Assembly (NCBI GenBank): GCA_907163375.1
Contig: CAJQUW010009247.1
Coordinates: 248,001-312,000 of the forward strand
DNA: 64,000 nucleotides
Source of the DNA: Prostheceraeus crozeri
Taxonomy: Eukaryota; Platyhelminthes; Polycladida; Euryleptidae
Direction of reading: 5' to 3'
In this document: positions 6,356 to 48,700 of the stretch, piece after piece
How positions within the stretch are numbered: position 1 is the first letter of the stretch
How the letters are laid out: every line of letters starts with the position of its first letter
The notes under the pieces: model-generated
The model's input: the letters and a program-made list of their open reading frames with translations, nothing else
What the model was told of the DNA's origin: nothing
Databases searched by the model: none
Position numbers and translations under genes: made by a program

Positions 6356-7349
6356 CTGAAATTAACATGTCAACTTACTGTCTGTTTCATGCATGTAAAT
6401 CGTTCCCAGAACATTCCTTATGACCAAAAGAAAATTAAAGGCGTGGGTATGTCAGACCAGAGATGGCCGGCCCCTTCGCTCCCCCCTTTCATGTCGCATT
6501 TTTGCTTTGGCACACTATAGAACAAAGCCGATCAAGCAACGCTTATGTGACTTTTAGCTTTGTTGTACTTTCAAAATTTTCACCGAAAGTCGTTGAATTT
6601 GACGCAGTGGAAAGTCAAATTTATGAGTGATTTTACAAAATACTTTTTTTCGAAGGAATGAGCTTCGCCCCTTTTGCAGAACTTTTTGTGTGATAAATTT
6701 TAATGAAGTGCATCCATTATCAATGTAATTGCAGTATTTTGTATATCTAAGTTGGTGAGTCAAATTATGATCATATATTATACCATAGATATCCGACTTC
6801 CCGCTGTTAGTAGGACTACTAGCAGAATGGACATCAGTTGTTTATTGATAGTGATTTCAGCCGTACGATGCGATTGATAGATCTTTAGAAGACGTAATAT
6901 GGAAGATTCTTGCCGCAGTGCGATTCATCCACAACGTTCTATTCTTTTCAATATCCTTTATTGTTATAGAGTGTTGGATTCTATGTATTATACCGTAGAC
7001 ATCGAATAGAATACTAGAAATTCAATTGCAATGTGATAACCATTTTTATTCAAATTTCAAATGATAATGACAATTTTAAGTGGCAAAATTTGTGTATTTT
7101 CCTAATGATTTGAATTCCTTATGTATCTGTAAGTTGTTTATCTTCTTTACATAAGAAATTACGTAGAACTGTATCATCAGATTTCCCAGACACATTGAAT
7201 TGGTTACTTTTGAAGAAAAACTTCTACATTTCATAAACGCATATTTTAAAATGTCATACATCGCTTTGCTTTCATAAAAATCATTTCACTATGATAGAAT
7301 GGGGTCATTGAGTTTAGAATTATAATGTCCTCTGGTGCATTTCTCTTAC

Positions 7350-7561
7350 CCGGTAGACGAACTGATCGACCGTCGAACATTGCTCGCATTGCGCCTGTCT
7401 TGGCTATCTTGAAGTAAACAGTGTGAGGCCGTCCGTCATCAACACGTGCTGTTGACATCTTGACATGATGATTCCGTTTCTGATGATTGTAGACGAAGTA
7501 CAGTTGACCGTCGAATATTTCCACGCAGGCGAAGTCTTCATGCCCTTCATCTCCAGGCCCA
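7350..7561 (-). CDS. Exon 8: core of LNS domain B
   Basis: Residues 962-1032 plus one base. The acceptor is ACATTTTCAG|T, whose T completes the ACT codon begun in exon 7. The donor is CCGG|GTAAGA. The exon gives ACVEIFDGQLYFVYN, then DDGRPHTVYFKIAKTG and MFDGRSVRLPG. This is the most recognisable LamG sequence in the gene (DG.l.f.y ... DG..H.v.f....... .DG). Asp in GDEGHEDF and in the FDG turns could contribute to the Ca2+ site found in LNS domains, but this cannot be settled from the sequence alone. Confidence 0.9.
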
Positions 7562-7965
7562 CTGAAAATGTATTGGCGAATTGTGTCATTTGTATAATAC
7601 ACATAGTACCGGTATTATAATTCCAACAGCATTTGATTAAGCTCCAATACTATAGCAATGAGTCGTATAGCATGTGGAAATTTCACTTTTATATTTTTAA
7701 ATTTGTATCTCAGTGAGTTACACATTTCTTTCATATTTGAATAAAATATCATGGCTTCTATCTATAATCCTGCAGAGGTTGAAGGTGAACCAATTCTATG
7801 AGAGAGAGTTCTGTGATGCTATTAGCACTTTGAAAGTAGTGTGAAATTTAAATTACCAATAGCCGGAAATTCTCTATTCTGCGAATTATCAGCAATCGCT
7901 TTTGCATAGCAAGTCCGACTTTTGATATATCAGGTCATTTGAGATAATTTGTAAAAATGACTTAC

Positions 7966-8608: not shown

Positions 8609-8795
8609 ACGGTTAATGCTATGTTGTCTTGGAGGATGAAGCTATCGGATTCTATTACGCGGGTTCTTCAATTGAGGACTTATGTCGTTCTGTCGCTCGT
8701 CGATAGCTCAGTTGGTAGAGCGTTGGCCTATAATGCCAGAGGTCGGTGGTTCAAATCCACCAAGACGCGCAGCAATTTTCCGTCTGTTAAATTAT
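8609..8795 (+). repeat. Duplicated tRNA-containing unit, copy 1
   Basis: About 187 bp, nearly identical to 8896-9083. The shared part starts at ACGGTTAATGCTATG, about 88 bp before the tRNA-like sequence, and runs about 25 bp past it. The two units are offset by 287 bp. Confidence 0.9.
8697..8768 (+). tRNA. tRNA-Tyr-like gene or tRNA-derived repeat, anticodon loop CTATAAT
   Basis: The D arm (GCTC-AGTTGGTA-GAGC), anticodon arm (TTGGC/GCCAG), five-base variable region and perfect T arm (GGTGG-TTCAAAT-CCACC) fold well. GTTCAAATC matches the Pol III B box. The anticodon would be ATA, which reads Tyr codons, and CGATAGCTCAGTTGGTAGAGCG resembles animal tRNA-Tyr. Two facts argue against a working gene. 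Only four of seven acceptor positions pair, and the intron usual in animal tRNA-Tyr is missing. A TTTT terminator follows at about 8775. A tRNA-derived repeat is more likely than a functional tRNA. Confidence 0.55.
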
Positions 8796-8895: not shown

Positions 8896-9083
8896 ACGGT
8901 TAATGCTATGTTGTCTTGGAGGATGAAGCTATCGGATTCTCTTACGCGGGTTCTTCAATTGAGGACTTATATCTTTCTGTCGCTCGTCGATAGCTCAGTT
9001 GGTAGAGCGTTGACTTAGAATGCCAGAGGTCGGTGGTTCAAATCCACCAAGACGCGCAGCTATTTTTCGTCTGCTAAATTATA
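8896..9083 (+). repeat. Duplicated tRNA-containing unit, copy 2
   Basis: Tandem partner of 8609-8795 in the same orientation, with a few substitutions. It includes the second tRNA-like sequence. Confidence 0.9.
8984..9055 (+). tRNA. tRNA-like sequence, second copy, anticodon loop TTAGAAT
   Basis: Same fold and B box as the copy at 8697. The anticodon stem has one mismatch and the loop would give AGA (Ser codon family), but there is no long variable arm as real tRNA-Ser has. It is therefore a degenerate duplicate rather than a new isoacceptor. A TTTTT run follows within 15 bp. Confidence 0.5.
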
Positions 9084-16470: not shown

Positions 16471-17347
16471 ATATATTTACTTGCACTGTTTGCGGTGCAC
16501 CGGTTATTTCTACTTGGAGTGGTTCCCGGGCCGCCCACAGAAATTGTTGAATTTTCAACATGTCTGTATTTCTTCATGGCTGCAATGTTTTCATAAGTAG
16601 GAAGAAGAACACGTTAGTCCCGTAACCAGACTATAGAAAATCAATTAAAATTTTCCTTCAATTTTCAACAACAGCTCATTCCACCGAGGGGTTTTGAACG
16701 AAACAAATTGATTAGCTTCATATAAAACTAGATTTCAGCTTTCAATCAGCATGGCATGAAACATGTGTTAAGTCAATTTCATTTGCATGCTGAATTGGTT
16801 TGGGACTATGAAAAATCTATTCAACAAAATGATTTTGGATAACTTATTATTGAGGTTTAAACTATGTCGTGGATTGGAAATAAAGGGTGTGAATTTCAAT
16901 GATCAATGAGGTGATCGATCCAGCTAACCTTCACCGGGGGAGGGACTCTCGTTGCATGCTAATGGCGATAGTTACCCACCTTCACCTGAAATAGACATGA
17001 GGCGTTTAAAACTGATACTGGGAAATAAAGAAAAGAAAAAAAAGAAGAAGTCATGGATGGCATAAACATTGAATACATTCGATAACAGACTTGTTCTTTT
17101 ATTAACGGAAGGTCGACATGAAAGCATTGATTTATATTCAAGATTCCGACTGATACTTACCAACTAATGACGATTTAGAATATTCACAAGTGGAATGCAC
17201 ACAGCTATCAAATCTGAAGAGATGTAACCACCACGAGACGTATTGTAGTAAATAGTGGACCTGGGTATGACATAATTGTTCGCAATTGGTGAAAACCCCA
17301 ATATGGCTGATGTTAGCCTTAAGACAAAAATGTCACTTCTTTTCAAA

Positions 17348-17392
17348 TTGCCGAGATCTTTCGACCAGCACTGCCGGCCATCATCAGAGAAC
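17348..17392 (-). ncRNA. Hammerhead-like motif with one extra base
   Basis: On the minus strand CTGATGA (17387-17381) is followed by an unpaired T and an eight-pair hairpin GGCCGGCA-G-TGCTGGTC. GAA, the self-complementary AGATCT and C complete the core. This matches the hammerhead order CUGANGA, stem II, GAA, stem III, NUH. Two features weaken it: the extra U before stem II and a poorly paired stem I. Palindromic loopless stem III is typical of minimal hammerheads that act as dimers. Activity is uncertain. Confidence 0.4.
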
Positions 17393-17541
17393 TAACGCCG
17401 TTCAACTACAAGATCGCCTGACTATCACTTGAAGATGGAACCAGCCGGTAAGACACTGCTTCATCGTGGAGGGCCTCACGTCGGATGCGGCAATAAGTGC
17501 CTGCAGAATGCCATCCGCCCTCAACGTGACTACGTTGTAGC

Positions 17542-18264
17542 CAGGCTTGCCGTTGGGACGGAATTCTTCGCCACATTCCCACAGAAAAAAATATTTCGAT
17601 TCTAATCCCATCCCACGTCATGATAGGTCCTTTAATATGATGGACATGCATGAATATAGATACGATGCGATACAACTTTATAAGCTTATTATATGCCGGG
17701 GTATAATAGCATAGAGACAGGCTCGTAGGCTTTATTCTTGAACCATAGGCCATATACACATATTTCTTGAAGTTTGTCCATTGGGTTTGAAATGGACAGT
17801 AGGCTGAATGCTGTTTAGCCTTTTCGGTACAGAAATGTTGACTTCCCCATCCTCTACTTGAGGTGATTAGCCAATCACATGAATAGAGCCGGTCTTACAG
17901 CTTGTTAATTGGTCTCTGTCGTGTCCTATTCATCTGATGAACAACAAAAGATGTGAAGGGGAATACAGGTTTCTCCGCGTCCTTTACGTTCTAACAACAG
18001 ATAAGATCAGCAATGAGTCAATGACAGCAGGCAAGACAGCAGTTGCTAGCATGTTCAGAAGTAGTTGCTAACACTTCAGAACGAAGAATCAACACTAAGA
18101 GTAGAAGAATGCATGATCAGAATGTGTGCGATTAACTTCTGCTCAAAATAAACACTAAAACTTTTCAATTAGTATTGTAAAATTTTCCTCTGGTTTCCCA
18201 TGGGACAGTAGCTTTCAATGCATCGTGGGAACCCATGGGTTTCCCACTTCCACCGGCAACCCTG
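17542..18264. mobile_element. hAT-like MITE, second copy
   Basis: The ends CAGGCTTGCCGTTGGGA and TCCCACTTCCACCGGCAACCCTG are inverted and match the element at 3932-4717. The sequence on either side joins up when compared with the uninterrupted element at 35750-36142, showing where the insertion occurred. The target duplication is no longer clear. Confidence 0.7.
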
Positions 18265-18311
18265 GACTTAAAGCAGTGTCTTATTGGCTAATTCACACTC
18301 TCAACTGATGT

Positions 18312-18393
18312 TCCGTTGGCCTTGTGGCTATAGCGCATGCTCGCACGTTCTCTGGCTCCAACGTCGCTGGTTCGAACCTGCCAGGACTGATGA
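18312..18393 (+). repeat. tRNA-like Pol III head followed by CTGATGA
   Basis: GGCCTTGTGGCTATAGCGC (A-box region) and GGTTCGAACC (perfect B box) precede CCAGGA-CTGATGA. The same tRNA-to-CTGATGA junction occurs at 35836-35921 on the other strand, where the rest of the hammerhead is present. Here the sequence after CTGATGA has diverged. Confidence 0.65.
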
Positions 18394-18654
18394 AGATCTA
18401 CAACCATGCAAATCCAATGCTCTATGAGATAAAGTACTAGAACGAACAGGCTCACTCACAGCAACACCACGTCTTGAACACGCATTGTCATAACAGCAGT
18501 GATGGCAGTTCCCAGTGGTTGACAATGTGGAAGTACCGGCCGCTCGTTGTGCGTGTTGTAAAGATCAACAGTTATCATCATTTCGTATTAAATAGAAAGG
18601 CATTTTGACGAAAGAAATGCAACCTTTGCGGGTTCCAGTAATTCGATTCTTCCT

Positions 18655-18745
18655 AAGATTTTGCAGTGTCTGACCGATCGGCTGAAATTGCCATCAACAA
18701 TCAGATGTTGTCAATTTTAGTCTCACAGACTTAAACAATTCTCTG
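18655..18745 (+). repeat. Dispersed repeat shared with 47345-47425
   Basis: CGGCTGAAATTGCCATCAACA and TAGTCTCACAGACTTAAACAA recur with a few changes at 47370-47425 in the same orientation. The family is unknown. Confidence 0.6.
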
Positions 18746-18785
18746 ATTGACATCTGTTCAGATTTGATAAATCTATCAACAGTCA

Positions 18786-20116
18786 CATTACTTGAAAAAA
18801 GTCGTCTGACATTCACATGTAATTCTACATCACTGAGCTGCTAAACCAACAGAGTCAAACAGAAAAAACTATGTTAGCATTATTATTAACTGTAATCATT
18901 AACTGCATCTTGCAATTAATGTTCAGTTAGGCAAAAAATTACAGTTAGTATAATTAATTAATGTGTGAACAATAATAAACAACTGTATGAATAATTCAAA
19001 TCATTATCAAAAACTGTTATATCAGGAAAAAACTTTTACGCCTTTTTGCGTCATTAATTAATTAGTCAACAATACACATTGTCAATAATAATGATAACAG
19101 TAGAACTAAACACCGATAAAAAAGACAATACATCAGCAATGTTCAAAGTAGCCGATAAGTTTCACTCCACGCTTTAATTACCTTTCCGAACCTCAACAAG
19201 TTCTACAAGTATAGGAAATGTCGATGATAAAATCAAACTCTCTTATGTTTTCATCATTTCAATAACTGAATGCGCAGGTGGTTCAGTTAAGGGGAAATGT
19301 ACCTGCTTTGAGAGGGGATCACAGATGAATCGCCAGACGACCACGACCAGCTGACTTCACTTTCGAAAGAAATACAGTATCGGGTCAGAAAACAAGGATC
19401 TTCAATCACCTACGCATGAACGATGTGTCAATATTATTGATCGGTGCAAGCTAGCACCTTACGCAGTTTATTTTATGTGGCCATGCAGCAAATTGCAGCG
19501 TTAGTCAATAGCAGCGCAGTGCAGCGTTCGTGACAGCATGGTATTTTTGTCGCAGCGCAATTTGTCCAAAAGGTGTTATGATGGTATCCAAAACATTGAG
19601 AAAGTTTTAAATATCCGTTATGTAGAGTCAACAGTCATACATTGGTGTTATAATTCAAAGTCCTCACCTACCATTGCTTTATCATTCAATAATTCTGTCA
19701 TATCATCGCACAATTCATTGTCATTGCTTCCATAAATTTGTTTGTTCATGATATTTAGCATTCCCATGTTTGTTATCATCACCGTGTTCTCTGGTTATGT
19801 GTTTTGATATCTTGACCTACAGGAAGTCTATTAAAGCTGATATGTTAGCCTTTTGTCTAAAGCCCTTCACTGCGTTAGCACTACGATCATCTACTAAGAC
19901 TAGATTTTTATTTTAGCTTGCTATGAAATACAATAGGGGAAAGTTGGAATTAATACATCTTGTCGCTCTATAAAAATGCTTTTCGAAATGATGGACAACC
20001 CGAAAGACATATTTGTTGGAAAGGAATTGCTCTATCACAGATTAATCATACATCCAAAACTAAGGCGCATTATCGCAAGTGACATAACTTAGATTGATTT
20101 ATCAAAGCCATGTATA
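18786..20116. other. Intron DNA, TAATTAATT-rich
   Basis: Strongly AT-rich, with many TTAATTAATG-type words between 18880 and 19100. No gene or bounded element recognised. Confidence 0.45.
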
Positions 20117-29365: not shown

Positions 29366-30660
29366 CTGAAAGATGGCAGACAGTGATGTTCAATTCATAT
29401 TGACAACAGACATGATGCAAGTTGAAAATGTATGCAAAAATATGTCTTGGCTCAAATGCAGTTTTAAACACTGTTTAAATATGGTCAATTATTTTGTATA
29501 GAACTAACTCTGTCAAGCCTCTCCGTTTTTTTCTCCAAGATGTTATGATCAGTGACAGGGGTCTTAGGCTACATATTTCCCGTAGAATTCTTTGAAGTAG
29601 ATATCATTATTAGTGATGAATTGAAGCGATCATTTTTTTTATTGATGAAAGCCCTCATGAATTGCATTGTCTACCAGACATGAGCAAGTAATCCATCTTT
29701 GTGTGAAGACCACATGAATGATTGTCAGATGACCTTTCTCCTGAAAATGAAATATCCAATTTTCAGCATGATCAGCCTACAATTACAACCGTTTTTAACA
29801 AATAAGTCTATGAATGTGTTCAGTACCTGTAAAATGGAATGAAAATTCGCATCAGTCAACTATCAGACTCAAAGAATGGTTCTCAAGTATAGCTATAATC
29901 ATTTCAGAAGTAATTTATTGATGCGCAAATGTGGCAAAAGCGTCACTGCAAAGTCATAATACATTAGCGAGAATTTTATCATGAGATTAGCCAATTAAAT
30001 GATTCAATCACAGTTTCAAATTAGTGTGTGAATATTTAAATTACTTGACATTTTTAGTTGGAGACTATTAAAAATCTACGGCAATCTACGAGTAAATAGA
30101 AAAAGCATTCTTTTGAGATTATGTTAAAATGTTTCTTGCACCAAATGTGAATATAATGGAAAACGTGCATGAAAAGTGAAAAGAAGACGTACTCTGTCAT
30201 TCCTTCAAATGCTGAAGATGCATTAAACTTAATAGTTACTATATTATTGTTCTTTTTTCATATATGCTATTTTTTCATTTCTATAAATTCCATTTTGACG
30301 CTGTGCATCCTACATGTACAGGACCACGCTTGGTTAGGTTTGAGTGTAAAGGATTTAGCGGTCGAAAGGCGATCGTTCACACCAAGTTCCTGTTCATGAC
30401 CTCATTTAATTAGTCAAATAATTTGTATTCATGCGAGTATTTTGTAGTATTTAATTTCTCGTTCTAGTAGGTCTGGGAACTAATATGAATTCTCTCATTC
30501 ACCTGGTGGATTTTAGATAGCGTAATCCCGTTGTGTTTGCTAGATCTTATCTTATTATTGGAAACAGACATCCTCTTATAATCACAAGGATTGCAGAATG
30601 CAGAATAGAATAGAAATATGTCCTCAGACTTGAACAATTTAAGCACAAAAATTCCTTGGC

Positions 30661-30706
30661 AGCCGTAGACGCTGCGTTTCGCCGTACAAGGGTTCGTCAG
30701 TGCGGC
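30661..30706 (-). ncRNA. Hammerhead ribozyme motif, Penelope type
   Basis: On the minus strand, stem I 5' strand GCCGCA (30706-30701) precedes CTGACGA (30700-30694), a 13-base stem II region, GAA, stem III ACG-CAG-CGT, C, and the stem I 3' strand TACGGC. Stem I pairs at five of six positions and stem III is perfect with a CAG triloop. All core bases (CUGANGA, GAA, GUC) are present. Stem II is weak, with about two pairs. The predicted cleavage site is between 30668 and 30667. Short stem III hammerheads of this kind are known from Penelope-like elements and retrozymes; a related, decayed sequence is at 55110-55200. Confidence 0.55.
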
Positions 30707-31336
30707 TTGGAATAGCCTAAAGTAGTTTAAAACATGTATCACATTTTTATAAACGCACAGCAGCCTGTTGTGCAGCCCTGAAGCTTGTTCAGCCATTCTA
30801 GATGTTTTGAACATTTTGAACAATATTCTGATATAATCAAATAAGCAATTACAAAGCATGTTAGGAAACGCTATCTTCAAAGATGTGTTTTCTCAAACAG
30901 AGAGTTATCTGAAAGACTTTAACACATGCATGTAAAGTGAAACATGTGAAGCACGATCCACTTTGAATTTAAGAATAAAAGGACATTTTCATAATGAAAG
31001 ATAACCAACCATTCGGCAGAGAAGTAATTGTCAATCAAGCGAATCCATGAAATAGCAGAGGACATCGAAATTTAAAGATCAAAACAATTGAAAGTGAACA
31101 GAGAGATAAAAAAACCAACAATCGACTTTACAAATATAGAGACTCATCTAAGCTAAGAATGTTGCCTTATGTTTGCTGACTTGAAATCTATGAAGTTTTT
31201 CACGATTGTAGTAATAACTTGAGATGTTGAATGTGATGCACGCAAAGAGTCAATACTGCATTTGGTTCCTACTGCAACTGTAAAAGGTGCAATGCTCTAT
31301 CGATTTAATTTGTAGTGAATCAAAATGATTTCCATT

Positions 31337-35613: not shown

Positions 35614-35749
35614 CAGGGTATTTGGAAAGTCACTGTGCAGTGAAAATACATCTATATTTCAATGTTTCCTTCACTATGAAAAGCAGTAGAGAGCAAAATA
35701 TGCATCGTAACGATTAGCATTTTATATTTTTTAGAACAAATTTCTAGAC

Positions 35750-36142
35750 GTTCAGACAAGTAACCTGGCTATTGATAAATTTATCAAATCTCAACAGATG
35801 CAACCACCACGAGACATGCTTCGGCCTGTTGCGCCTCATCAGTCGTGGGTAGGTTTGAACCAGCGACGTTGGAGCTAGAGGACGTTCAAGCATACCCTCT
35901 AACCACAAGACCACCGGACCATCTGTTGCGAGCGTGAATTAGCCAGGAAGGCACTGCTCTAACGCAGGCACGTGGAGGGCGGACTGCATTCTGCAATCAT
36001 TTAATACCGCATCCGAGGCGCTTCACGCAGGCGCTACTCATTACATGTTCTGACAAGTAACTTGGCAATTGATAAATTTATCAAATGTCAACAGGCCGAA
36101 ACATGTCTCCTGGTGGTTACATCTGTTGAGATTTGATAAATC
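35750..36142 (-). mobile_element. tRNA-hammerhead foldback element, copy 1
   Basis: Inserted in the mariner relic and bounded by TCTAGAC on both sides (35743-35749 and 36143-36149), a 7-bp target duplication. In minus orientation it has an inverted end, a GC-richer segment, a tRNA-like region (35921-35850) with TGGTTAGAGGG and a perfect B box GTTCAAACC, then an intact-core hammerhead and a tail TTGAGATTTGATAAATTTA. Both ends carry ATCTCAACAGATG.AACCACCA.GAGACATG in inverted orientation, so each end holds the 3' half of a hammerhead, but only one has CTGATGA. There is no coding capacity; movement would need enzymes from another element such as a Penelope or LINE. Copy 2 is at 17196-18785. Confidence 0.75.
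35807..35848 (-). ncRNA. Hammerhead ribozyme motif, intact core
   Basis: Stem I CCACGA/TCGTGG is six perfect pairs. CTGATGA (35842-35836), stem II GGC/GCC with a seven-base loop, GAA (35822-35820), and stem III GCA/TGT with no loop (one G-U pair), followed by C at 35813, complete the core. Cleavage would fall between 35813 and 35812 after GUC. The loopless palindromic stem III is typical of minimal hammerheads in retroelements that work best as dimers. The inverted partner at 36088-36108 has GAAACATGTC but has lost CTGATGA. The motif sits immediately after the tRNA-like B box. Confidence 0.65.
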
Positions 36143-36204
36143 TCTAGACATTGTGAAACTATAGACCGTAAAACTGTAGACAAGATTGACATTGACAATT
36201 TCAA

Positions 36205-43900: not shown

Positions 43901-44120
43901 GATATGTTTTGATGATCGAAAACGTAGACGAGACTTTCCGCAATGTGGGATTCTACTGAATCAGCTACTTTCCCCTATGGGGTTTAAAGTAAGCGGGCTC
44001 TCTTCTGAGTGAGTTTCAGATAAAATCAAATATATGGGCTTAAGGTAGCTTTCCCCATATTAAACTCTGCTCAAAGGGTTTCGGCTATGTGGCTTTCAGG
44101 TAGGTAAGCTTTCCTTTCGG
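40977..44120. other. Intron between exons 2 and 3, low part
   Basis: No exon recognised. A hammerhead-like fold at 41957-41992 is described separately. The last 150 bases (43970-44120) contain CTTTCCCCT-type words resembling degenerate minisatellite units. Confidence 0.45.
41957..41992 (+). ncRNA. Weak hammerhead-like fold
   Basis: CTGATGA is followed by T, a six-pair hairpin (AGCGAC...GTCGTT) and GAAA with the near-palindrome AATATT. The layout matches the motif at 17348-17392, including the extra T, but there is no proper cleavage triplet or stem I. It may be a decayed ribozyme or chance. Confidence 0.2.
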
Positions 44121-44900
44121 TGTGCTTCCCCTAAGATTGATTCCTGTATCTGTGCTTCCCCTGAGATTGTTTCCCATATGTGTGCTTCCCCTGAGATTGC
44201 TTCCCGTATGTGTGCTTCCCCTGAGATTGCTTCCCGTATGTGTGCTTCCCCTGAGATTGTTTCCCATATGTGTGCTTCCCCTGAGATTGCTTCCCGTATG
44301 TGTGCTTCCCCTGAGATTGCTTCCCGTATGTGTGCTTCCCCTGAGATTGTTTCCCATATGTGTGCTTCCCCTGAGATTGCTTCCCGTATGTGTGCTTCCC
44401 CTGAGATTGCTTCCCGTATGTGTGCTTCCCCTGAGATTGCTTCCCGTATGTGTGCTTCCCCTGAGATTGCTTCCCGTATGTGTGCTTCCCCTGAGATTGT
44501 TTCCCGCATGTGTGCTTCCCCTGAGATTGTTTCCCATATGTGTGCTTCCCCTGAGATTGTTTCCCGTATGTGTGCTTCCCCTGAGATTGTTTCCCATATG
44601 TGTGCTTCCCCTGAGATTGCTTCCCGTATGTGTGCTTCCCCTGAGATTGCTTCCCGTATGTGTGCTTCCCCTGAGATTGCTTCCCGTATGTGTGCTTCCC
44701 CTGAGATTGCTTCCCGTATGTGTGCTTCCCCTGAGATTGCTTCCCGTATGTGTGCTTCCCCTGAGATTGCTTCCCGTATGTGTGCTTCCCCTGAGATTGC
44801 TTCCCATATGTGTGCTTCCCCTGAGATTGTTTCCCGTATGTGTGCTTCCCCTGAGATTGTTTCCCTTATGTGTGTCTCCCCTGAGATTGCTTCCCGTATG
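44121..44900. repeat. 30-bp minisatellite, 26 copies
   Basis: Twenty-six units of exactly 30 bp (TGTGCTTCCCCTGAGATTGC plus TTCCCGTATG) without a single indel. Two main variants, GC...CGT and GT...CAT, alternate in a partial three-unit pattern in the first ten copies. Because 30 is a multiple of three and the unit lacks stops, at least four frames stay open: SNLRGSTHTG and EAISGEAHIR on minus, LPLRLLPVCV and MCASPEIASR on plus. It lies in the intron between exons 2 and 3. No splice sites tie it to the gene, so it is taken as noncoding. Confidence 0.97.
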
Positions 44901-45059
44901 TGTGTCTCCGCTGAGTGTGCTTCTGCTAAATGGATTTCAGGTAAGTGGGGCTTCCCTTCGGTGGGTTACTGCTCAGCGAGTTTCCCTTGAATAGGCTACC
45001 GCCAATCGGGTCATTCTTGTTGTATATGCAAGTTTTAAACATTCACCACTCAAACTTAC

Positions 45060-45709
45060 CTCCATATTGTACACACTGCACTCCACTGGATCTTTTTGTT
45101 TCTCGGACTCTCGCCGAGGTTGCTCCTCACGGAATTGTAGCTCGTCAATATCAAAGCCTCCACCCCTTCGACCGCCCATCTCAGCAGATGCTCCAACGTA
45201 AATCTTTGCGTCATCAATCAATTTCGTATTGATAGAAATCGGATGCTGCACAACTTTCACTCTTTTTCCATCAATATCTATGACTAAGCCTCGCTCTGGT
45301 GACCAAGCCAACTCAAGTAGCTGCCACACATTTTGCTTTAATTTCAATAGCCCGGGAGACATCCATGTTCTCGTGCGAGTCTTGAAGAAGACATTCAGAA
45401 GTCCTGGAGAATTGGTGAAGATATCATATGAACGACTGGACAAGATAAATGCGCTATTGCGTTGAAGGTCATTCGGACGGAGCCACAAGCGAATGGTAAG
45501 ACCGTTGAGGCAACGCTCGAGGTCTCCATAGCAGCCATAATGAGGACCAAGGTCGACGAATGCATTGTTTGGAAGATGTAGCGCTGATCCATATTTACTG
45601 TTAGGGAAGGACTTCACCTTGCCATGAGATGTAATTTGAAATTGATCACTGATGAAATGTCCGGCCGGAGATTCATGTTCGAATGATATGGTCGACATTT
45701 TCACGGTAG
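45060..45709 (-). CDS. Exon 2: first VDLG-type LamG-like domain
   Basis: Residues 254-470. The acceptor TTTCAG|CT joins the single G left by exon 1 to make GCT (Ala), and the donor is GAG|GTAAGT. The exon is one jelly-roll LamG-like domain with FVDLGPHYGCYGDLERC followed by LTIRLWLRP, WQLLELAWSPERGL, a short DGKRV turn and AKIYVGA. The same signature recurs in exon 3 (VDLG, four residues, Cys, six or seven residues, Cys, then Gly and a W.L strand), so the two domains look like an internal duplication. The cysteine pair probably forms a disulphide next to the first strands. The family (LamG/pentraxin fold) is inferred from this pattern; I do not recognise the exact subfamily. Confidence 0.85.
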
Positions 45710-48700
45710 CTGAAAGTAAGGAGAAAACTTGAAAGACTCATACTAAGCAATGAAGAAATCAGGAAGGAGTTAGAAATCGTAGGAACCGCTTTAAAAACGG
45801 CCGCCGAAAAACGACGAAGTCATTACTTTAAATATTGGTGATATGAAAAGTTATACATACCGAAAAATACCTCCATAGATGCATCCGTGCAATTTTTTTC
45901 AGCATTTTAGGGGTAGAAAATCCTTACTGTCATAAATATTTATATATACTACTTTTAGTGTTTCTGGTGACCACTTTTAAAAGAGCGGTCCTGAGATTTT
46001 TCTGAGAACGACTCAAAATATGTTGATGAAGTGAGAGAATAGATTTCTAAAGGGCTTCTTTGTGGTAGAGAGCTTTTGGCACAACTAATTTTGAAATAAT
46101 AACATTTGTACACTGCGACAGCCTTTTGAAAAAGTTTTACCATATCCAAACGGTTTTACCATATCCATATCCAACTCACAAAGTACTTGAATGACGCACA
46201 GCCACGGGCATTGTAGATGGTAGTGCACTCTTTACGTTATTGATTTTATTTCAATTAATGACTTTTTGGTACTTTTTGGCCTTTACGACAAGCTCTGCCA
46301 AACACAAACGGTTCACACGGCTCTCAAAATTGAATGACATGTACTCTATTGTATATAGGGCCATACTTTATGCGTGAAACACTAAATCTCGGAATGAGAC
46401 ACTACATGAGCAGCTCGATTCTTCTACCAAATTCACAAAATTTTGTTGCTTGGTTAGTCTTTCAGCTACTTATCGTCTATTGGTGTCATAACTTTATAAA
46501 TAAAATAATTGAATTTTAGATGAATTCTAAGAGTTTTATAAGCATTTACATATGAAGAATGTATTTAAGATACCTTGCTCACTTTTTGGCATTTTAGGCC
46601 CATTGACTTGATGAATAGCAAAATGTGCTATTTTTTGTTTTTGTAGCACAAATGTGTTGTACTTCCAAAACAAAAACAAATGCATAATTGCTGTAATCAG
46701 TCTGAAAGGATGCCTAACAGTTAAAATGTCAATGGCCTTTTGTTGGATAGTGCTCGATCACACTCATGATTGCCTACGGCGTCGGGCTTTTCATATAAAT
46801 CAGTCGTATCGAGACTTCACACTATCTTTTGCTCTCAATCAATGCTGCAAGCCTATCATAGTCCATGTTCATACTTAATACCATAGAAATCCAACTCTAC
46901 AATAATACAGAACTAGAACGATGGTCATGTATATTAGAAACAGTGAAACGTCGTGGCCATGCGTTGTCCAGAAAACGCTGTCTGAACGATGGCGGCTTCC
47001 ACTGGTTGACAATTCTTTTCTATGATATTCTTTTCCCCAATCTAGATAGATAATCGAAAAAAGTATATCAGAAAGCCGCTACAGCTAAAATTTTCCCCTT
47101 GGAAGCAAGTGCAAACTTAATAGAGTCTCCTAAAAGTCACAAGCCTGGAAAGACCGGCAAAGAATGCAACTGTTTGCCATATTGCACTTTCCGCCCTTGA
47201 AAGTGAGAGGGTTCATAGTCAAGAATCAAGGTGTTCTCATTTTGTGTACAAAAGCATTTTGATAAAGTATCATAAAATATGCCCCCTTGCGACAAATATC
47301 TGCAGTAATTGCATGTATCACAAATTTGATTCTTCGTGTGATCTGCACAGCAATATTTGCCTGACTAAGCGGCTGAAATGACCATCAACAAGCAGCCGCT
47401 GTCCATTCTAGTCTCACTAACTTAAACAAAGCGAAAAGTTGGGTTTCTTTGCCTAATACCATACCGAAATTCAAGGGCAGACAATTTCTGTGAGAACAAT
47501 CAAACATCCTTCCCTGTCTTTAAAAATGCTCTATATAATGAGCATTTCAGGTACTGGGATGCAGCCCAAATGTTAATCAAAGCAAATTGTTTGAAATAAA
47601 ATTTAGTCCATTACGATCAATACTTCACAGTTCTATGTAACAATTTTTGGACTTTCGGAAAATTTACTTCATTATCCTTGAACTGGGTACTTCTATTCTT
47701 CCCCCACATTTTTGTTGCTGACACGCGCTAGTGTTGCATCGTCAGCGATCTTTTCTTGCTCCTATCTTCTCTTGCAGTCTCACTGCTGTCGCAAAAACGT
47801 TGAGTGCAAAATTCCTCTGGTTAGTAGTAGTTTCACAGCACTTATGCTTTGTAGTTCACCCTAGACAACAATCTACAGAATTCATGATCACTGTATCTTG
47901 GATTCCAAGGCACCAAGCCTTCATCCCAATGTTCAAGTAAGACTTCTCAGCGGTGTTGTACTATCACCCAGTGACAGATCAAGTCCATTCTAAATCCAAT
48001 GTGACTAAGTTTGACGAAATTTCATGTAATTGGAAAAATTTTAAAAATGTGGGTGAGGGGTGGCAAGGAAAGAATAGAAGTACCGTGGAGCTCAGTCAAA
48101 CAATTTCCAGAAGCTGTGTAGAAGCATTTGCATTTTAGAATTTGGATCCAATGGGGATTCCAACCCTGTCAACATGTAAACAGTTTGGTCGAACTGCCAC
48201 TTGATCTTCATTTGCGAGCGTCTGCTAATTGTGGATACCGGTGTAGACGATAAAGTTGACACACAAATATTTATTGAGCTGTATTACGCATAGAATTAGA
48301 CGGTCACCTTGTATTGCCTTTGATTGACAAGTGAATCATTGTATTCAACGAACGGCTCTCTATTCAAAGATGGATTCTCTAACACTCGCTAAGTTGACTG
48401 AACTGAGAAAGTTTTGAAGAACTTGATTTATTGAATGTAAAAAAACGTGATGCTTTTTGTTGTTATTGTTGCGATTACAATATTTTGCATCGTCTGACAA
48501 ACCTACATATGTAATAGATATACCGATAGCCTCAAAACATTGTTTGGTTGAACTGGTGTGCAAAATAGAAAGCCTGTAACACGATTGTCGTAACTTTAAT
48601 ACGCTGCATTATCGCATCATGATATGCACTACTAGACCTCATCATTTAAATATCTTTTAGTTTTCGCATCGACCTTTCTTAGCAATCCACAGTGTGATTA

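What the first reader, a model, noticed from the sequence alone, without database searches (positions are those of the whole stretch)
35743..36149. tRNA-like promoter fused to a hammerhead ribozyme in a foldback element
The 393-bp element has a B box (GTTCAAACC) only a few bases before a hammerhead with intact CUGAUGA, GAA and GUC, a six-pair stem I and a palindromic stem III. Both ends carry inverted copies of the ribozyme 3' half. A Pol III transcript from it could self-cleave. SINE-like SM-alpha repeats of schistosomes and metazoan retrozymes also pair hammerheads with small transcripts, but I know of no family with this tRNA-hammerhead plus inverted-end layout.
Basis: partly seen in the sequence, partly recalled or inferred. 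Interest (0 to 1): 0.8.

Follow-up and report, generated by a model that had tools for sequence, protein, structure and literature searches.

The report
Self-cutting repeat spread by Penelope elements
The window holds one copy of a common animal repeat whose RNA carries a self-cutting hammerhead motif, and the way its copies end in the genome suggests that it is spread by the machinery of another kind of mobile element, called Penelope.

Summary
The element is real: 35750-36142, flanked by TCTAGAC repeats, with a hammerhead on the minus strand (35855-35802). The family unit is a 303-bp noncoding repeat. Its 30-nt core occurs 1807 times exactly in the 2.05-Gb host genome (reversed-pattern control 0), often in tandem. 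It is a metazoan retrozyme, or a SINE-like relative of schistosome SM-alpha.

The foldback is explained. Inverted copies are head-to-head; both outer ends lie just downstream of the ribozyme, one at unit ~34 (A), the other at ~62 (B), in or beside the loops of two predicted hairpins. Among the listed ends in (TA)n, 32 of 32 outward-facing pairs are A/B. Twenty sampled inverted insertions are A/B, none A/A or B/B; three have one end elsewhere.

Head-to-head copies with a ~30-bp tail at one end are a published mark of Penelope-like elements. Two of four inverted Penelope pairs examined here show it clearly. Best explanation: a Penelope-type enzyme primes from both target strands at two sites of the retrozyme RNA.

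Weak points: the tRNA-like promoter rests on motifs (no tRNA model match); the helper is not identified; the window copy has changes in stems II and III; RNA, cleavage and circles are untested.

The parts
35743..35749 (.). left copy of the 7-bp flanking repeat TCTAGAC (putative target duplication)
35750..35812 (-). unit positions 63-1, downstream of the cleavage site; outer B-end at 35750
   Evidence: L001 1508-1570
35772..35787 (.). palindrome TTGATAAATTTATCAA (hairpin A of the unit, 26-41)
35802..35855 (-). hammerhead ribozyme, type I; cut between 35813 and 35812
35813..36094 (-). unit positions 303-16 (unit body)
   Evidence: L001 1571-1852
35852..35861 (-). B box GGTTCAAACC; its AACC is the outer part of stem I
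35897..35913 (-). A-box-like stretch TGGTCTTGTGGTTAGAG
   Evidence: not above chance by motif
36069..36084 (.). second copy of the palindrome
36089..36094 (.). inversion junction, 6 bases shared by both arms
   Evidence: L001 1847-1852
36089..36107 (+). unit positions 285-303, ribozyme 3' part in the inverted arm
36108..36141 (+). unit positions 1-34; outer A-end at 36141
36143..36149 (.). right copy of TCTAGAC

Best explanation
It is one insertion of a high-copy non-autonomous retrozyme. Tandem 303-nt units are transcribed (promoter uncertain; perhaps an internal Pol III promoter) and cut at the type I hammerhead, probably as dimers because the family's stem III is only AC[AU]GU, a perfect ACAUGU palindrome. 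The RNA, perhaps circular, then serves as template for a Penelope-type reverse transcriptase/endonuclease that opens both strands of AT-rich DNA, often (TA)n. One target strand primes cDNA at hairpin A (unit 26-41, start ~34), the other at hairpin B (unit 50-69, start ~62). The two cDNAs run towards each other for part of a unit up to many units and are joined at variable points. This gives head-to-head copies, both outer ends just 3' of the ribozyme, a 28-nt tail at one end only, and a short target duplication. Shown here: unit, hammerhead core, end positions, pairing rule, duplications at several sites, variable junctions, the same layout in some Penelope copies of this genome. Inferred: transcription, cleavage, circularity, priming at the hairpins, identity of the helper.
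For: Copies: 1807 exact cores, control 0; among the first 100 listed places, 34 of 35 same-strand neighbours under 700 bp are 303 bp apart and 13 of 15 opposite-strand neighbours face outward. Ends: A-ends in (TA)n 285, B-ends in (TA)n 213, controls 0 and 0; 100 of each were listed. Of those 100 A-ends and the 71 listed B-ends up to contig C4746, 34 neighbour pairs lie under 7 kb: 32 face outward and all are A/B; the two others (one A/A, one B/B) face inward. Random pairing predicts 49% A/B. The 32 lengths, 53 bp to 6.1 kb, all differ. Sampled loci: 20 inverted insertions A/B, 0 A/A, 0 B/B, 3 with one end elsewhere. Duplications at nine non-TA A/B insertions: 12-15 bp in four (L070, L072, L079, L080; no shuffle of 500 reaches them), 6-8 bp in four, none in one. 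Penelope copies: the 4 opposite-strand neighbour pairs seen among the 150 listed GIY-YIG places all face outward; in L041 and L068 one end has a tail of 24 and about 37 bases that the other lacks, with duplications of 12 and 14 bp; L069 has a 12-bp duplication. Published: two adjacent internal start sites bounding the tail, both target strands extended, AT-rich targets (PMC11167929, parts 1-2 of 4); inverted pLTR, 9-bp duplication, 31-bp tail at one inverted pLTR (PMC3846280, passages).
Against: None of the Penelope stretches held (L031-L065) shows a hammerhead in the element by my descriptor or a related tail sequence, so the helper is not identified; these cover few families and not whole units in most loci. 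L067 has no duplication of 10 bp or more and L069 runs past its aligned arms at both ends (12 and 25 bases), so a clean tail is seen in two of four pairs only. L019 has no duplication and four others only 6-8 bp, which shuffles reach in 3-38%. L017, L026 and L076 have one end elsewhere. PMC11167929 saw no difference in start site between the strands in vitro and no need for hammerhead cleavage, so strict A/B pairing is not predicted by it. PMC3846280 prefers self-priming for inverted copies. No expression data.
Confidence: 0.75

Rival explanations
1. Self-priming: one cDNA or RNA end folds back at the palindrome and is copied, giving inverted copies (the view of PMC3846280 for Penelope).
For: A palindrome lies exactly at the A-end; PMC3846280 (passages) reports palindromes at inverted junctions.
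Against: Here the palindrome is at the outer end, while the inner junctions fall at variable unit positions with 0-8 shared bases or short gaps; self-priming would put the palindrome at the junction and does not explain why the other end is always B.
Confidence: 0.1
2. Ordinary tRNA-derived SINE moved by a LINE, with twin-priming inversions as known for L1.
For: B box and A-box-like stretch; 5'-truncated copies and duplications.
Against: No A-rich or LINE-like tail was seen at the ends printed; L1 twin priming (recalled) leaves a random, not a fixed, second outer end; no tRNA model match.
Confidence: 0.08
3. A DNA element: foldback transposon or Helitron-like repeat with terminal hairpins that spreads in TA repeats.
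For: Inverted ends, palindromes, many sites in (TA)n.
Against: Arms of different length and content at each insertion, whole tandem units, 5' truncation, duplications of different length.
Confidence: 0.04
4. Plain satellite amplified by recombination, with inversions of no meaning.
For: Long arrays on C815, C12040, C1095.
Against: Hundreds of dispersed ends at two fixed positions and 32 of 32 A/B pairs.
Confidence: 0.03

Closest known systems
Metazoan non-LTR retrozymes (PMC7229834, parts 1-2 of 6 and passages; PMC7761336, passages)
   Same: Type I hammerhead in tandem repeats of about 300 bp without a protein; weak, palindromic stem III as in amphibian motifs
   Different: PMC7761336 says that retrozymes seem to lack promoters and show no motif that tells the helper; here the copies bear a Penelope-like end pattern, and a B box overlaps stem I
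Schistosome SM-alpha / Sj-alpha SINE-like elements (PMC2770079, PMC8490949; passages)
   Same: Small repeat with a type I hammerhead and a tRNA-derived head (tRNA-Gln in S. mansoni)
   Different: No tRNA model match here; SM-alpha sequence and insertion layout were not compared
Penelope-like elements (PMC11167929, parts 1-2 of 4 and passages; PMC3846280, passages)
   Same: Head-to-head copies, tail at one end, short duplications, AT-rich targets, internal starts, tandems
   Different: No reverse transcriptase or endonuclease; 303 bp
Minimal dimer-acting hammerheads of Penelope elements (Cervera 2014, Lunse 2017; known to me from citations in other papers and from recall)
   Same: Very short stem III
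   Different: Here stem I has an internal loop and an outer helix as in canonical type I motifs

Membership tests
Metazoan non-LTR retrozyme | type I hammerhead with intact core | tested here: met
   family unit; the window copy is altered at 15.1 and in stem II
Metazoan non-LTR retrozyme | small noncoding tandem repeat (about 170-400 bp) | tested here: met
   303 bp unit
Metazoan non-LTR retrozyme | low GC content (under 50%) | tested here: inconclusive
   50.5%
Metazoan non-LTR retrozyme | unit-length linear and circular RNA | not testable with these tools
   no RNA data
tRNA-derived SINE | recognisable tRNA-derived head with A and B box | tested here: inconclusive
   perfect B box; no tRNA match at E<=10; boxes not above chance; a SINE-head pattern search did not complete
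SM-alpha | sequence homology to SM-alpha | not tested
   no schistosome sequence was at hand
Penelope-like element (autonomous) | reverse transcriptase and GIY-YIG endonuclease | tested here: not met
   the unit is 303 bp
Penelope-type insertion | head-to-head copies with a tail of about 30 bp at one end | tested here: met
Penelope-type insertion | short target duplication | tested here: met
   12-15 bp at four of nine non-TA A/B insertions, weaker or none at five

The most novel reading that the evidence does not exclude
Retrozymes are the SINEs of Penelope elements. Two reverse transcriptases of one complex sit on one (perhaps circular) RNA at two neighbouring hairpins and each must take a different one, one per target strand. 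This one-A-one-B rule explains the Penelope tail, the head-to-head copies and the multi-unit arms at once.
Probability: 0.5. Interest if true: 0.85.

Novelty: new variant of a known kind. Interest (0 to 1): 0.72.

Why it matters
Which enzyme moves animal retrozymes is open: PMC7761336 (passages) says that their repeats show no conserved motif that would reveal the helper, names Penelope/Terminon elements as likely candidates, and says they seem to lack promoters. The end pattern here points to a Penelope-type enzyme and gives a rule, one A start and one B start per insertion, that can be tested with purified protein. It also bears on how Penelope elements make their head-to-head copies.

Tried and rejected
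A 5.8-kb spacing of three cores on C46 looked like an autonomous partner; the fetched stretch (L066) is a duplicated genomic region with an ordinary foldback copy. Hammerheads in the Penelope stretches: none in the elements by descriptor; one motif with a palindromic ACCGGT beside L056 was left unexplained. A Penelope with the same tail hairpin: of three sites that differ downstream, two are retrozyme variants and one (L085) is a tail-only insert with a 17-bp repeat on both sides; its other 88 bases match nothing clearly. L060 joins a short retrozyme tail to a 5'-truncated Penelope copy; both favour (TA)n, so I do not count it as proof. The lack of TTTT in the unit means little: 49% of random sequences lack it. 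The exact core in IMG/VR: 0.

In print: searches. I read passages or parts of nine papers (PMC7229834, PMC4918200, PMC7761336, PMC2770079, PMC11167929, PMC8490949, PMC10886601, PMC6962438, PMC3846280) and passages of PMC8969392; none of what I saw states a Penelope end signature for retrozymes. Ferbeyre 1998 and Cervera 2014 are not held.

Full report
What is there. The window lies in a 2.05-Gb animal genome of 14165 contigs. The element at 35750-36142 is flanked by the 7-bp repeat TCTAGAC. On the minus strand it holds a unit body, an A-box-like stretch, a B box, the hammerhead and 63 downstream bases; on the plus strand, at the right end, the ribozyme 3' part and 34 downstream bases. Arms of 53 nt are 94% complementary.

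The family. A whole-genome search with the element lists over 150 of 236 matches, from 40 scored of 1867 candidates, so that count is a lower bound. The unit was read from locus L004 (303 bp; position 1 is the first base after the cleavage site) and mapped on L001-L030. The exact 30-nt core occurs 976 + 831 times, the reversed pattern 0 times. Of the first 100 listed places, 34 of 35 same-strand neighbours nearer than 700 bp are 303 bp apart, one 606.

The hammerhead. Unit: stem I CCACGA/UCGUGG, internal loop UAC/U, outer helix AACC/GGUU; stem II GGCC/GGCC, loop CAACA; stem III AC[AU]GU, a perfect ACAUGU palindrome and so suited to dimers. HH9 gives 33.5 bits on three units of L004 and 28.3 on L014, 23 on the window copy; the gathering score is 52. 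The window copy has C to G in stem II and A to G at 15.1, which probably weaken it (inference). The numbering and the usual A at 15.1 are recalled; dimer action of short stem III motifs is in PMC7229834 for amphibians (abstract).

The promoter. The B box is perfect and its AACC is part of stem I. An A-box-like stretch starts 52 bases upstream. But the tRNA model does not match at E<=10, the box scan picks only the tRNA genes at 8697 and 8984, and six shuffled windows give 1-5 box pairs. In isolation this region folds as one long hairpin. A tRNA origin is plausible by eye, not shown.

The ends. Inverted copies have both outer ends just downstream of the ribozyme, one near unit 34 and one near 62; in (TA)n the matches run on to about 38 and 68 because the flank resembles the unit. 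Of inverted insertions with both outer ends in view, 20 are A/B: L001, L002, L003, L007, L012, L013, L018, L019, L020, L021, L025, L028, L030, L066, L070, L072, L075, L077, L079, L080. None is A/A or B/B. Three have one end elsewhere: L017 at 235, L026 at 220, L076 at 296. L022, L027 and L074 repeat insertions already counted. Loci whose arrays run out of view (L008-L011, L015, L023, L029, L073, L078, L081) and the adjacent pieces of L018 were not counted; L083 was not resolved. L004, L006, L014, L024, L071 and L082 look one-sided. L005 carries nine bases of an A arm between its duplication and the unit; I left it out of the count.

A genome-wide test. A-end in (TA)n 285 places, B-end in (TA)n 213, reversed controls 0; the first 100 of each were listed. 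Among the 100 A-ends and the 71 listed B-ends up to contig C4746, 34 neighbour pairs are nearer than 7 kb: 32 face outward, all A/B; one A/A and one B/B pair face inward and fit two insertions side by side. With these frequencies random pairing gives 49% A/B, and 32 of 32 has probability about 1e-10. The 32 lengths all differ, so the pattern arises anew at each insertion. Some of the same insertions are also in the 20 above (for example on C949, C4198), so the two counts are not independent.

Duplications. Nine A/B insertions outside TA repeats: 15 bp L080, 13 L070, 12 L072, 12 L079 (reached by none of 500 shuffles each); 8 L030 (2.8%), 7 L001 (7.4%), 6 L002 (15%), 6 L077 (38%); 4, i.e. none, L019. 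Some overlap the element ends by a few bases. L013, whose one end is in TA, shows none.

Hairpins. Site A is in the loop of TTGATA-AATT-TATCAA (unit 26-41); site B is at the loop edge of TTACTTGT-CTAA-ACATGTAA (unit 50-69). Both are in the minimum-energy fold of the circular unit, -103.6 kcal/mol, z -3.7 against 100 shuffles. In a fold of 62 bases the first stays and the second changes to a larger loop that still holds position 62.

Penelope copies here. The GIY-YIG search scored 150 of 11858 candidates and lists 150 places. Four pairs lie close together on opposite strands, and all four face outward. L041: arms 593 bp, 99.5% alike, 12-bp duplication, 24 extra bases at one end. L068: arms 621 bp, 14-bp duplication, about 37 extra bases at one end. 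L069: 12-bp duplication, 12 and 25 bases beyond the aligned arms. L067: a 2.48-kb palindrome without a duplication of 10 bp or more. Shuffled flanks reach 12 bp in 0.1%. One abundant family (L061) has 3' ends that often run into (TA)n. No hammerhead was recognised in the Penelope stretches themselves. 32 other hammerhead-like motifs with a different stem II occur in the genome; six places were fetched.

Reading. PMC3846280 (passages) gives as typical Penelope structure an inverted pLTR beside direct ones, a 9-bp duplication in the example, and a 31-bp tail optionally at one of the inverted pLTRs. PMC11167929 (parts 1-2 of 4 and passages) shows for an Anolis enzyme cleavage and extension of both target strands, AT-rich targets, and internal starts at two adjacent sites that bound the tail. 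The retrozyme copies bear these marks. So the foldback is best read as the mark of Penelope-type priming from both strands, and the element as a retrozyme or SINE that uses it. New against what I saw of those texts are the strict one-A-one-B rule and evidence that ties a retrozyme to this machinery, which PMC7761336 (passages) names as a likely candidate.

Limits. PMC11167929 found no strand difference in start sites in vitro, with which the A/B rule must be reconciled.

Noticed in passing
window 17204-18800: Old relative of the same repeat, A-end side on the left and B-end side on the right, interrupted by other sequence; the tRNA-like part is 82.7% identical over 127 bp.
   Followed up: partly
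window 30640-30725, minus strand: CTGACGAACCCTTGTACGGCGAAACGCAGCGTCTACGGCTGCC, a second hammerhead-like repeat; similar downstream sequence follows the motifs in L089, L090, L091 and L093.
   Followed up: partly
L088 (C2914:211300-211800): Minisatellite with a 41-bp unit in which the descriptor finds seven hammerhead-like motifs.
   Followed up: no
window 8697-8769 and 8984-9056: Two tRNA genes found by Rfam (47.8 and 39.4 bits) and not by ARAGORN with the bacterial code.
   Followed up: no
window 7246-7614 and 44973-45737, minus strand: Open frames with Laminin G-type domains; the second is below Pfam's cut-off.
   Followed up: no
L084 (C6227): COI reads through with TGA=W and AGA=S; AAA stands where I recall Asn to be usual, which would fit genetic code table 9. 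Host not identified.
   Followed up: partly
L061 and L032 (C12829): 259 bp beside a Penelope array are 99% alike on both sides, an unusually long repeat for a target duplication.
   Followed up: no
window 44064-44990: Tandem repeat of a short unit, open in several frames.
   Followed up: no
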